A DNA stretch of 63,369 bases from Chloroflexota bacterium (GTDB lineage Bacteria; Chloroflexota; Anaerolineae; Promineifilales; Promineifilaceae), in NCBI GenBank assembly GCA_018004935.1, contig JAGNBF010000038.1, forward strand, positions 1 to 63,369. The letters run 5' to 3'. Position numbers and translations under genes: made by a program. Every line of letters begins with the position of its first letter. The first letter of the stretch is position 1. Shown here one piece after another: positions 6,966 through 53,777 of this stretch. The notes below the pieces were generated by a model that saw only the letters and a program-made list of their open reading frames with translations, was not told the origin of the DNA and searched no databases.

Positions 6966-7161
6966 TACTGTGGCCGGATAAGCGTTCAGTCGGATTACAT
7001 CAATGGATTAAAAATAAACGGATTTTCCAGAGGTCGTCTTTAATCCATCTCTTTCTAAATCCGTGGAAGTAATCAAAACGGCCTAAAATCATCTCTGAAC
7101 TGAACGGTTACGTGGTTGGCCTCCTGATCGTGCCACCTATCTTATTTCCGAACGATTACTA
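6966..7161. repeat. Family D repeat interrupted by a family B element
   Basis: Outer parts 6966-6977 and 7112-7161 together read as a family D repeat (compare 33714-33785 and 54361-54420: CTGTGGCCGG, TCCTGACCG, GCCACC, TTATTTCTGAACGAT). It is split by the family B element at 6978-7111. Confidence 0.7.
6978..7111. mobile_element. Miniature inverted-repeat element, family B, copy 1
   Basis: 134 bp with terminal inverted repeats TAAGCGTTCAGT (6979-6990) and ACTGAACGGTTA (7099-7110). Inside are further inverted segments (TGGATTAAA with TTTAATCCA; ACGGATTT with AAATCCGT). The flanks GTGGCCGG (6970-6977) and GTGGTTGG (7112-7119) look like an 8-bp target duplication with two transitions, produced when the element entered the surrounding family D repeat. 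No open frame is present, so mobility would depend on a transposase elsewhere. Confidence 0.75.
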
Positions 7162-33121: not shown

Positions 33122-33325
33122 CTATCGCCTGCCTATTGGTATAGTAGAGAAGTTATGGGTGAGCCAAACCCCCAAACATGTTAATAGATGTGGTGGTACA
33201 AAATTGAATCGTATCTATACAGGTAGGGCACAGCGATGCCTGAGCATGTCAAAGGCGGAGCCGGACTTCGGCATGCTCAGCCCTTGAGGACGTGTATAGT
33301 TACACTGAATCCGGGTTCGTTCGCA

Positions 33326-33380: not shown

Positions 33381-33713
33381 TTGACCACAAACACCCAAAA
33401 AATTCAACCTATCTGTTTGTTAACTGGCTTTGGTGACTATTGGATCAAGCATAAGTTTAAAGTAACGACCTGATTGTGCCATAGTACTTCTTACTTTAAG
33501 AAGCATATCTGAAACAGCCAAGGTCACTTACACATGATGACGGTCACGAAACTTTCAAACCCATTATTTCTCGTCAGGTAATAATGACCATAACAGAGAA
33601 GCGTGATTGAAACGTGAATCAGTTACCACCTAAATAATCGTTCGTTTTTATGTAAGCATTCAGTTACCCCGCCCGGCGGTCAAACCGCCAAGTTCAATGG
33701 ACGAAGCCCTACG

Positions 33714-33785: not shown

Positions 33786-33944
33786 GGTTATCCAAACGCC
33801 ACAACCTGTTCGCCTGGTTGCCTTGCCCTGTGGCCCCTCCGGTGGGAAATGAGGCAGTGGTGAAATGATTAGGCCAATCCCCGTTTTTTAAGGCAAGCAA
33901 AATCGGGGGTTTTTGTCGTTTAAAAAATTAATCAGGTAATGGAA

Positions 33945-34200
33945 TCCCCCCCACCCCTAACCTCGCCCCCAGGGGCGGGGAACTTTTCTAAGGGGCATTT
34001 TTCGGGGCATTCGCCCCGAAAAATGCCCCCTTGGAATTCCCCCCTTCCCGGGGGAATCGGCAGGGGGGATGGGGTCAATGAAGGCGTTACCCGATTAAAA
34101 ATTTAATGAACAAACACTCCCGATTTTGCTCGCCGAGTGGGTTCCCTCTCCCGATTTCGGGAATCGTCAGGGGGATGGGTTCATTCTGGGGAGTAGGCAA
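33945..34200 (+). repeat. Family A element with perfect 17-bp hairpin
   Basis: Leader CCCCCCACCCCTAACC then CCCCCAGGGGCGGGGAA, hairpin arms 33992-34008 (GGGGCATTTTTCGGGGC) and 34013-34029 (exact complement), and a right part with GGGGGATGGGTTCATT and GTAGGCAA near 34193. The right terminal repeat is decayed and the left one is not found. Confidence 0.75.
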
Positions 34201-34249: not shown

Positions 34250-34311
34250 TGAGAATTGTGGGGTGTCAATCCCCTCAATTCCCAAAGAACCTAAATCGTT
34301 TATAATGGGGT

Positions 34312-34469
34312 GTACGCGTTCAGTTATCCCGCCCGGTGGTCAAACCACCGGGCGAATGTACCAGAGCTTTACGGGCTAAAACCCCAGGCCAACGGCCTTT
34401 GTAATGATAGCCCACTCGTTTTACGGCCGGGCGGGTTTGGCGGATGAATTTATATGACTGAACGGTTAC
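34312..34469 (+). mobile_element. Miniature inverted-repeat element, family B, copy 2
   Basis: 158 bp. Ends GTACGCGTTCAGT (34312-34324) and ACTGAACGGTTAC (34457-34469). It is flanked by a perfect 9-bp direct repeat TAATGGGGT (34303-34311 and 34470-34478), the signature of transposition. Inside, a hairpin CCCGGTGG-TCAAA-CCACCGGG pairs where copies at 53536 and 49670 have CCCGGCGG with CCGCCGGG, a compensated change. No open frame. Confidence 0.85.
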
Positions 34470-34668
34470 TAATGGGGTTGATGGTTTTTTGCACATGTTG
34501 TAACTACTTGAGTTTAGAGTTCAGAGCCAGAGTTAGAGGGTTTTCCAGAGTAATTTCCTCTCACTCTCTCCTGTCGCTCTAAACTCCAGTAATTACTATA
34601 TTTTTTGTTCCATATGCCTGTCAAAAGGGGATAACACTATGTATAACCACCAGAAGAGGATGTCATCA

Positions 34669-49558: not shown

Positions 49559-49640
49559 GAGTATATCCACGTTTTGTGGGAGGCCTGACAGGTTTTAGAA
49601 ACCTGCCAGGTCTGTGCCCCACGATTTATGGGTGTACTCA
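49559..49640. mobile_element. 82-bp miniature inverted-repeat element, family E, copy 1
   Basis: Ends GAGTATATCCA and TGGGTGTACTCA, an inner hairpin (GCCTGACAGGTTT / AAACCTGCCAGGT) and the shared words CGTTTTGTGGG and GTGCCCCACGATTTATGGG. It is flanked by a perfect 8-bp direct repeat TGAGGTAG (49551-49558, 49641-49648). Same length as the copy at 51597-51678. Confidence 0.88.
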
Positions 49641-49669
49641 TGAGGTAGTAATTCTCAATTTGGCCTGAA

Positions 49670-49912
49670 CGTCTAAAAATGCCGAGGCCGCCCAGTCGTA
49701 AAACGGGCCGGGCTATGGTTACGAAGGTCGTTGGCCTACTGTTTTAGCCCCTAGTAGTGCGACAGACAAGATTTGTCGGTTGGAAGGTGGTGGCACGGTC
49801 AGGAGACCGGCCACAGCTATTCGACGGAATAAGTTTGTTGAACTACTAGGGCCTGGTACTGATAGCCCGGCGGTTTGACCGCCGGATGGATTAACGGAAC
49901 GTTTATCGTTCA
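49670..49912 (-). mobile_element. Family B element, inverted, interrupted copy
   Basis: Reads in reverse the interior of 53536-53777: GGGCCGGGCTATGGTTACGA, then GTTGGCCTACTGTTTTAGCC, and CCCGGCGGTTTGACCGCCGG. Between GTTTTAGCCC and TAGGGC it is broken by the element at 49751-49849. The empty site is preserved at 53536-53777 as GTTTTAGCCCGTAGGGCTGG (read in reverse). Confidence 0.75.
49751..49849. mobile_element. 99-bp inverted-repeat element, nested
   Basis: Terminal repeats CTAGTAGT (49751-49758) and ACTACTAG (49842-49849). The interior carries a reversed family D segment (CGGTCAGGAGACCGGCCACA). It is inserted in the family B copy, as shown by comparison with the uninterrupted copy. Confidence 0.75.
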
Positions 49913-51350: not shown

Positions 51351-51458
51351 AATTGCGGTATCTTCTCGTAACTATAGCATTTACGATTGACGATTTTAGA
51401 TTTACGCTTGGGAACACGCTGGTTAACGTCTCACAAAACCCAGAATCTTTATCTTAAG

Positions 51459-51552
51459 GTAAGCGTTCAGTCCCTCTGGTGCGAAAGCCTTCCCAAGGTT
51501 TCGGGAAAGGTGTTGACCAGTGGAACAAACCTTGGGAAGGCTGAACGCTTAC
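51459..51552. mobile_element. Family B element, short copy with long hairpin
   Basis: 94 bp. Ends GTAAGCGTTCAGT and CTGAACGCTTAC, interior palindrome AGCCTTCCCAAGGTTT / AAACCTTGGGAAGGCT. It is flanked by a perfect 7-bp direct repeat TCTTAAG (51452-51458, 51553-51559). The interior differs from copies 34312-34469 and 53536-53777, so only the ends define the family. Confidence 0.8.
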
Positions 51553-51596
51553 TCTTAAGCTCTATAGTTACGCCACGCCAGGGTAAACGTTCACTC

Positions 51597-51678
51597 GAAT
51601 ATACCCACGTTTTGTGGGAGACCTGACAGGTTTCTAAAACCTGTCAAGTCTGTGCCCCACGATTTATGGGTATACTCT
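51597..51678. mobile_element. 82-bp miniature inverted-repeat element, family E, copy 2
   Basis: Ends GAATATACCCA and TGGGTATACTCT, inner hairpin GACCTGACAGGTTT / AAACCTGTCAAGTC, and shared CGTTTTGTGGG and GTGCCCCACGATTTATGGG. It is flanked by a perfect 8-bp direct repeat GTTCACTC (51589-51596, 51679-51686). Confidence 0.9.
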
Positions 51679-52252: not shown

Positions 52253-53539
52253 ATGCTCGCTTTCATCCGCCATTATTTTAGTCCTACGTTGCGTCAGGTT
52301 ATCCTCCTTTTTCTCATTGATATGGGGACGAATGTTGTTGACTATGCCTTCCATTTTTATCTGGGCTGGGTATTACAGCCAACGGATTTTGCTATTGTCC
52401 AGACGGTGAATTCGGCTTTGTTGGTAGCGGTGACGGTATTTGGGATGAACCAACCGGCGGTGGCCCGCCTGGTAGCAACGGCGGCTGGGGATGAGGTCCA
52501 AGGGCGAGCCATTTTTCAGACCTTTTTGGGGCAAAGTAGCTGGTTGGGGCTGGCATTGGTGGGGCTGATTGGGGCGGGGCGGGGGCTGATTGCCTCATGG
52601 CTGAATGTACCACCGATGGCTGTGGCAATTGCGGCCGCGATGCTCTGGTTTGCGCTTACTCGTCCGGTGGTGGCAGGTATGCTTCAGGCACGGCAACAAT
52701 TTTGGGCTTACGGTGGCTCACGTACTGTGTATGCCGTGAGCCGATTGGGGTTGGCTCTGATTTTACTCACTGTCTGGACGTCAAATGCCAATCTGGCCCT
52801 GATCACCTTACCTTTAGGGGCGTTGGCGGCGCTTTTGGCCGGGTTGTGGGCTTTGGGCGGGTCTGTCTGGCGGCGAACACCCCGCCTGGCCCGGAATGTG
52901 GTTGTAGAGGGGTGGCGGCTTTCGTTGGGGGCGTTGGTGGCTTATGGGGCCTTTATGTTTTTGCAGAGTGTAGATGTGATTTGGGTGAACCGAATGTTTG
53001 CGCCGGAGGACGCGGCCGCGTTCTCGGCTGTGGTTTTGTTCCGTCGTTTATTAGCCGTGTTGCCGGGGGCTGTGGTTGTGATTATGTATCCGCGTGCGGC
53101 CGCGCTTGTGGCCCAGGGGCAGTCACCGGCACGCCTGCTCCGCCTTACCACCTTGGGCATTACCCTGCCGACATTACTCCTGACGCTGGTCTATTTTGCC
53201 TTTGGTGACACATTGATGGCGGTGAGTTTTGGCGGTAAATACCTGCAAGCCGCCCCGCTGTTGGGGTGGATGGGGGTGGCGATGTTGGGGCATGGGCTGG
53301 TGACGATGTGGTTGAACTTTTTTCTGGTAACGCGGCCGCTGGGTTATGTGGTGGCTCTGGTTGTTGCGGCCGCGGGGCATTTGTTGCTCCTCACCCTCTT
53401 CGGGACCACTTTAGCTCGTGTCACTCTCATTTTTGGTTTGACTGGGTTATTATTAACCAGTATAGGTCTGGGCTTTTATGATTTGTCTCAGAGGCGTGCC
53501 AGGCCGGGAAAATGGACGAAGGTTAATGGAACAGTGTAA
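52253..53539 (+). CDS. Polysaccharide flippase-type membrane protein (MOP/Wzx-like)
   Basis: 428 residues with about 12 hydrophobic helices and the opening FSPTLRQVILLFLIDMGTNV, AFHFYLGWVL typical of polysaccharide biosynthesis MATE/MOP exporters, which move lipid-linked oligosaccharides across the membrane. The loop MNQPAVARLVAT follows helix 2. It has five GCGGCCGC octamers, mostly encoding Ala runs in helices (AIAAAMLW, EDAAAFSA, PRAAALVA, VAAAGHLL). A weak AAGGTAA precedes the ATG. No glycosyltransferase is adjacent. Confidence 0.85.
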   Translation: MLAFIRHYFSPTLRQVILLFLIDMGTNVVDYAFHFYLGWVLQPTDFAIVQTVNSALLVAVTVFGMNQPAVARLVATAAGDEVQGRAIFQTFLGQSSWLGLALVGLIGAGRGLIASWLNVPPMAVAIAAAMLWFALTRPVVAGMLQARQQFWAYGGSRTVYAVSRLGLALILLTVWTSNANLALITLPLGALAALLAGLWALGGSVWRRTPRLARNVVVEGWRLSLGALVAYGAFMFLQSVDVIWVNRMFAPEDAAAFSAVVLFRRLLAVLPGAVVVIMYPRAAALVAQGQSPARLLRLTTLGITLPTLLLTLVYFAFGDTLMAVSFGGKYLQAAPLLGWMGVAMLGHGLVTMWLNFFLVTRPLGYVVALVVAAAGHLLLLTLFGTTLARVTLIFGLTGLLLTSIGLGFYDLSQRRARPGKWTKVNGTV

Positions 53540-53777
53540 ACGTTCCGTTACTCCACCCGGCGGTCAAACCGCCGGGCTATCCGTACCCAGCCCTACGGGC
53601 TAAAACAGCAGGCCAATGGCCTTCGTGACCATAGCCCGGCACATGAGAAAGTTCCCCGCTCCTCGGGGCGGGGTTAGGGGCGGGGGATACCATGTTACCT
53701 GACTGTTTTTTTAAACGACAAACGGCCTGGGTAACAATACGGACGGCGTGGATGAATTTACATGACTGAACGGTTAC
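53536..53777 (+). mobile_element. Family B element with a nested family A fragment
   Basis: Ends GTAAACGTTCCGT (53536-53548) and ACTGAACGGTTAC (53765-53777), hairpin CCCGGCGG-TCAAA-CCGCCGGG near 53557, interior shared with 34312-34469, and an inserted reversed family A piece at about 53645-53700 (TTCCCCGCTCCTCGGGGCGG). Flanking GGAACAG (53528-53534) and GGAGCAG (53778-53784) may be a worn target duplication. It overlaps the end of the flippase gene and reaches the region just before the phosphatase start. Confidence 0.75.

What the first reader, a model, noticed from the sequence alone, without database searches (positions are those of the whole stretch)
34303..34478. Family B element with a 9-bp target duplication and compensated hairpin
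The copy at 34312-34469 lies between two TAATGGGGT repeats. Its inner hairpin CCCGGTGG/CCACCGGG corresponds to CCCGGCGG/CCGCCGGG at 53557 and 49865, a paired change. The copy at 51459-51552 shares only the ends, with a different interior hairpin and TCTTAAG duplications. So only the ends are needed for mobility, and the cargo is exchangeable.
Basis: seen in the sequence. Interest (0 to 1): 0.72.

Follow-up and report, generated by a model that had tools for sequence, protein, structure and literature searches.

The report
IS66-type mini-transposons (MITEs) with swappable interiors
The 158-bp sequence is one copy of a large family of tiny, gene-less jumping DNAs in a Chloroflexota bacterium that share only a 12-13 bp end; full-length jumping genes of the IS66 family with the same end exist in related bacteria, so the mini-elements were most likely moved by such an enzyme even though none was found in this genome's assembly.

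Summary
Window 34312-34469 is a 158-bp element between TAATGGGGT repeats (34303-34311, 34470-34478). The own genome has 370 exact GTAASCGTTCAGT ends (reversed control 0). In a 1.78-Mb sample, of 198 elements 71 carry exact 8-bp, 14 exact 9-bp, 2 exact 7-bp and 1 exact 10-bp target duplications; mismatched flank pairs give 0.06%. Three nested copies leave a clean empty site when removed. Several unrelated interiors (158, 94, 119-136 bp and others) share only the 12-bp end. The partner exists in relatives: single-ORF IS66-family insertion sequences (NF033517, 274 bits) with the same ends and 8-bp duplications. No IS66 transposase was found in the own assembly. So these are type-II MITEs of the IS66 family (ISBst12-like), mobilised in trans: a new member of a known kind. 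The "compensated hairpin" is real but weak evidence of function. In the 158-bp type the paired change is one subfamily difference; the other stem pairs decay, with G-U as common as A-C mismatches. The 94-bp type shows a small significant excess of paired changes. In passing: a second MITE inserts at the centre of unrelated hairpins, and GCGGCCGC is 66-fold over-represented.

The parts
34303..34311 (+). target-site duplication, left copy TAATGGGGT
   Evidence: sequence
34312..34469 (+). B1-type MITE, 158 bp
   Evidence: edges from genome-wide matches; 51 aligned copies
34312..34324 (+). left terminal repeat GTACGCGTTCAGT
   Evidence: consensus GTAASCGTTCAGT from 176 ends
34332..34352 (+). inner hairpin CCCGGTGG-TCAAA-CCACCGGG
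34457..34469 (-). right terminal repeat GTAACCGTTCAGT (minus strand)
34470..34478 (+). target-site duplication, right copy TAATGGGGT
   Evidence: sequence
51459..51552 (+). B2-type MITE, 94 bp, TCTTAAG duplications at 51452-51458 and 51553-51559; inner arms 51488-51501 / 51527-51540
53536..53777 (+). B1 copy carrying a nested, partly lost other element; ends GTAAACGTTCCG and GTAACCGTTCAG
49665..49906 (-). diverged B1 copy (left border approximate) interrupted by another repeat (CCTAGTAGT...ACTACTAGG)
33652..33713 (+). 5' part of a B1 copy (GTAAGCATTCAGTTACCCCGCCCGGCGG...), interrupted
6978..7111 (+). B3-type MITE, 134 bp

Best explanation
The element is a type-II MITE: a short, gene-less transposon whose only essential part is a 12-13 bp inverted end, GTAASCGTTCAG(T). 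A transposase of the IS66 family, ISBst12-like single-ORF group, recognises these ends in trans and inserts whatever lies between them into new sites, duplicating 8 (sometimes 9) bp of target. Shown: multiple copies, exact borders, target duplications, empty sites in nested copies, several unrelated interiors, and full IS66 elements with the same ends and 8-bp duplications in related Chloroflexota. Inferred: that the IS66 transposase is the actual mover, that 12-13 bp are sufficient, and that the partner was present in this lineage and has been lost or is missing from the assembly.
For: 370 exact 13-bp ends in the own genome, 0 in the reversed control. Of 198 complete elements in 1.78 Mb, 71 have exact 8-bp and 14 exact 9-bp duplications; mismatched flank pairs give 38 of 58,806. 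Three nested insertions restore a whole B3 element when the inner copy and one duplication are removed, e.g. L016:1501-1657 in L016:1477-1761. IS66 elements with GTAACCGTTCAG ends: L100/L237 (1558 bp, duplication AGCCAGCG), L238 (1558 bp, GATTTTCG), L098 (1596 bp, one end GTAAGCGTTCAG), and multi-copy ends in G021, which also holds dozens of MITE-type ends. Family assignment NF033517 at 274 and 276 bits, cut-off 180; PF03050 E about 1e-29 to 1e-30. The two ends of each IS share only about 12-15 bp, the same stretch that the MITEs share. All 4 relatives with a transposase at least 60% identical have these ends (18 of 59 overall; P about 0.007). ISDge4, an ISBst12-group IS66 element seen to transpose, has ends GTGACTACTCAGCA and GTAACTGCTCAGCA and an 8-bp duplication (PMC12898284).
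Against: No IS66 transposase was found in the own assembly with PF03050, NF033517 at E up to 1, or tblastn with the relative's protein. L098 shows no target duplication. Seven of the 59 relatives with at least 2 of these ends (G024, G034, G010, G008, G028, G032, G006) also lack a close intact transposase. No experiment shows mobilisation. The association test counts ends that belong to the IS elements themselves.
Confidence: 0.88

Rival explanations
1. The hairpins are the functional part: the elements are structured RNAs or regulators that happen to be spread by transposition, and paired changes reflect selection on the fold.
For: Both types fold better than shuffles (z -3.4 and -6.2). In the 94-bp type, 4 double-change cells (3 events) against 0.6 in shuffles, 7 of 5000. 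The arms of that type change as little as the end repeats (0.039 against 0.034; rest 0.056 without subfamily sites).
Against: G-U mismatches are no more common than A-C mismatches in B1 hairpin H1 (27 against 23) and in B2 (14 against 12), so no RNA strand is favoured. B1 arms are not more conserved than the rest. No Rfam match in the window. Different types have unrelated interiors.
Confidence: 0.12
2. The ends are mobilised by a different, undetected transposase of this genome, and the likeness to IS66 ends is convergent.
For: No IS66 gene in the assembly. The shared end is only 12-13 bp.
Against: Twelve matched bases at both ends plus the same 8-bp duplication in several relatives. No convincing long element with these ends was found in 1.78 Mb of the own genome. 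DDE_Tnp_1 transposases are also undetected.
Confidence: 0.07
3. REP/REPIN-like palindromes spread by a RAYT (Y1) transposase.
For: Small palindromic repeats in high copy.
Against: 8-9 bp target duplications and true terminal inverted repeats are not features of Y1-mediated spread, by general knowledge of that family.
Confidence: 0.02

Closest known systems
IS66 family, ISBst12 group (e.g. ISDge4 of Deinococcus geothermalis, PMC12898284)
   Same: Ends GTAACTGCTCAGCA against GTAASCGTTCAGT; 8-bp duplication; the partner IS has a single transposase ORF without tnpA/tnpB
   Different: The elements here carry no transposase and the own assembly has none; 9-bp duplications also occur
Type-II prokaryotic MITEs (review PMC10969869)
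   Same: Short, non-coding, multi-copy, likeness to the autonomous element limited to the ends
   Different: Partner family is IS66, for which the papers searched gave no MITE; several unrelated interiors on one end
MITEPsy1/2/3 and MITECca01 (PMC3189936, PMC6053426, PMC9769881)
   Same: Short elements (100-240 bp); MITEPsy1, MITEPsy2 and MITECca01 share ends with a named IS (for MITEPsy3 the mover is only 'probably' ISPsy25); MITEPsy3 and MITECca01 are in high copy
   Different: Partners are IS5 (MITEPsy1), Tn3 (MITEPsy2), IS630 (MITEPsy3) and IS982 (MITECca01), not IS66

Membership tests
MITE (type II) | short, non-coding, terminal inverted repeats, many copies | tested here: met
   51 B1, 40 B2 and 24 B3 copies aligned; 12-13 bp ends
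MITE (type II) | target-site duplication and clean empty site | tested here: met
MITE (type II) | likeness to an autonomous element only in the ends | tested here: met
   IS66 ends in L100, L238, L098, L134 against MITE ends
IS66 family / ISBst12 group (for the partner element) | IS66 DDE transposase above curated cut-off | tested here: met
   NF033517 274 and 276 bits, PF03050 103 and 108 bits
IS66 family / ISBst12 group (for the partner element) | GTAA-type ends and 8-bp duplication | tested here: met
   L100 and L238; L098 lacks a visible duplication
IS66 family / ISBst12 group (for the partner element) | single ORF, no tnpA/tnpB | tested here: met
   1558-1596 bp elements nearly filled by one 490-498 aa frame
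IS66 family (for the MITEs themselves) | moved by an IS66 transposase | not testable with these tools
   needs a transposition assay; no such gene in the own assembly
Structured RNA family | match to a known family or strand-specific pair maintenance | tested here: not met
   no Rfam match; G-U about equals A-C

The most novel reading that the evidence does not exclude
In the 94-bp type the inner arms are a second, co-evolving part of the transposon end. Lineages change the arm sequence on both sides together (G021: ACTTGACAAG/CTTGTCAAGT and ACCTGACAGG/CCTGTCAGGT; G026: ACTTTTGAAG/CTTCAAAAGT), so a folded single-stranded or cruciform form takes part in IS66-type transposition, or a palindrome-copying repair process keeps the arms matched.
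Probability: 0.2. Interest if true: 0.6.

Novelty: new member of a known kind. Interest (0 to 1): 0.42.

Why it matters
IS66-family transposition is poorly characterised. A natural set of hundreds of mini-elements that share only 12-13 bp with the IS66 partner points to a minimal end and gives ready-made substrates to test it. It also shows one end sequence adopting several unrelated interiors in one bacterial genome, and a MITE load that persists where no matching transposase is detected.

Tried and rejected
A full-length element with these ends in 1.78 Mb of the own genome: none convincing. IS66 and DDE_Tnp_1 in the whole own assembly: none. Contig starts as hidden IS66 copies: 1 of 20 starts inside a B element, none in an IS66 end. 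Structured RNA: no Rfam match, no G-U excess. A k-mer clustering of interiors merged unrelated types because of nesting and was replaced by length and anchor grouping. Papers on IS66-derived MITEs: none found in the held library, which lacks most subscription journals.

Full report
What is there. The window is contig C180 of a 7.98-Mb genome. The relatives that carry the partner element are named Chloroflexota and Anaerolineae assemblies. The copy in question is 158 bp, 34312-34469, flanked by TAATGGGGT on both sides. Searching the genome with it plus flanks gives 40 scored places (this copy and 39 others, the scoring limit), most of which match over the element and stop at or within a few bases of its borders. 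The end GTAACCGTTCAGT occurs 100 times exactly, GTAAGCGTTCAG 288 times, and GTAASCGTTCAGT 370 times; the reversed control has none.

Mobility. In 1.78 Mb of fetched own sequence (chosen around hits, so biased) 198 complete elements were found; 71 have an exact 8-bp, 14 a 9-bp, 2 a 7-bp and 1 a 10-bp duplication. Pairing left and right flanks of different elements gives 38 matches in 58,806. Three copies sit inside another element; taking out the inner copy and one duplication gives a whole 120-136 bp element with both ends. The end consensus over 176 ends is strong for 12 positions and fades from position 13.

Interiors. At least four main types share this end in the own genome: B1 (155-162 bp, this copy), B2 (94 bp, the 51459 copy), B3 (119-136 bp) and a type with the inner arm AGAAGTTGAACTTTT. 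Relatives have others. No coding function is apparent in any. Many larger copies are B elements with other repeats nested inside.

The partner. In relatives, PF03050 finds IS66 transposases, and three full elements have these ends: L100 (=L237, 1558 bp, 8-bp duplication AGCCAGCG), L238 (1558 bp, GATTTTCG) and L098 (1596 bp, no duplication visible). G021 has several copies ending at contig ends, with the same end, in a genome with many MITE-type ends. The proteins exceed the NCBIfam IS66 cut-off. ISDge4, a member of the ISBst12 group seen to transpose, has closely similar ends and an 8-bp duplication (PMC12898284). The own assembly holds no IS66 transposase by three searches, nor any DDE_Tnp_1. 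Short-read metagenome assemblies often lose multi-copy insertion sequences while keeping shorter MITEs (general knowledge), so the absence may be technical; contig starts gave no sign of IS66 ends.

The hairpin. The other eight pairs of that stem show one double change against 53 single ones, with G-U and A-C mismatches about equal, and the arms are not more conserved than the rest. In 40 B2 copies there are 4 double-change cells from 3 events against 0.6 expected by shuffling (7 of 5000), again without G-U excess, and the arms are nearly as conserved as the ends. The shuffles do not keep relatedness, so this is suggestive only. Between lineages of 93-95 bp elements in other genera the arms differ but stay complementary. 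This could reflect selection on a folded DNA form, matching of both ends to one binding protein, or palindrome-copying repair; the data do not separate these.

Verdict. A type-II MITE family of IS66/ISBst12 type, mobilised in trans: a new member of a known kind.

Noticed in passing
window 33913-34113; L032:1607 and 3574, L026:7078, L176:5528, L034:13882 and others: A second MITE-like family (about 200 bp, ends TTGT...ACAA, long inverted ends) sits at the centre of unrelated hairpins. The script lists 46 entries, most copies once per strand (about 25 distinct); 32 of 46 have at least 8 of 12 flanking bases paired around the insertion against 0.35% of random positions, and the central base is the same on both sides in 30 of 46. 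By a related stem score, B elements show this in 0 of 88 cases. It looks like structure-directed insertion, perhaps with a 1-bp duplication.
   Followed up: partly
whole own genome sample; 104 times in the window: GCGGCCGC (NotI site) occurs 2678 times in 1.78 Mb against 41 expected, also inside coding-looking sequence, while four of six other GC palindromes or words tested are at 0-1 (GCCCGGGC 22; CGGCCGCG 1809, which overlaps the same repeat). Relatives do not show it at this level. It resembles the HIP1 iterated palindrome of cyanobacteria.
   Followed up: partly
window 33211-33303; L032:13027, L182:16664: 93-94 bp elements with other ends (GTATCTATACAG, GTAACTATACAG) but a layout like the 94-bp B2 type, some with 8-bp duplications.
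   Followed up: no
window 49559-49639 and 51597-51677: Another repeated palindromic element, GAGTATATCCACGTTTTGTGGGAGGCCTGACAGGTTT..., two copies 89% alike.
   Followed up: no
L003:7540-7642, L041:2633-2735: 103-bp elements with ends GTAACTATTCAG and 8-bp duplications, closer to the ISDge4 ends GTGACTACTCAGCA/GTAACTGCTCAGCA.
   Followed up: no
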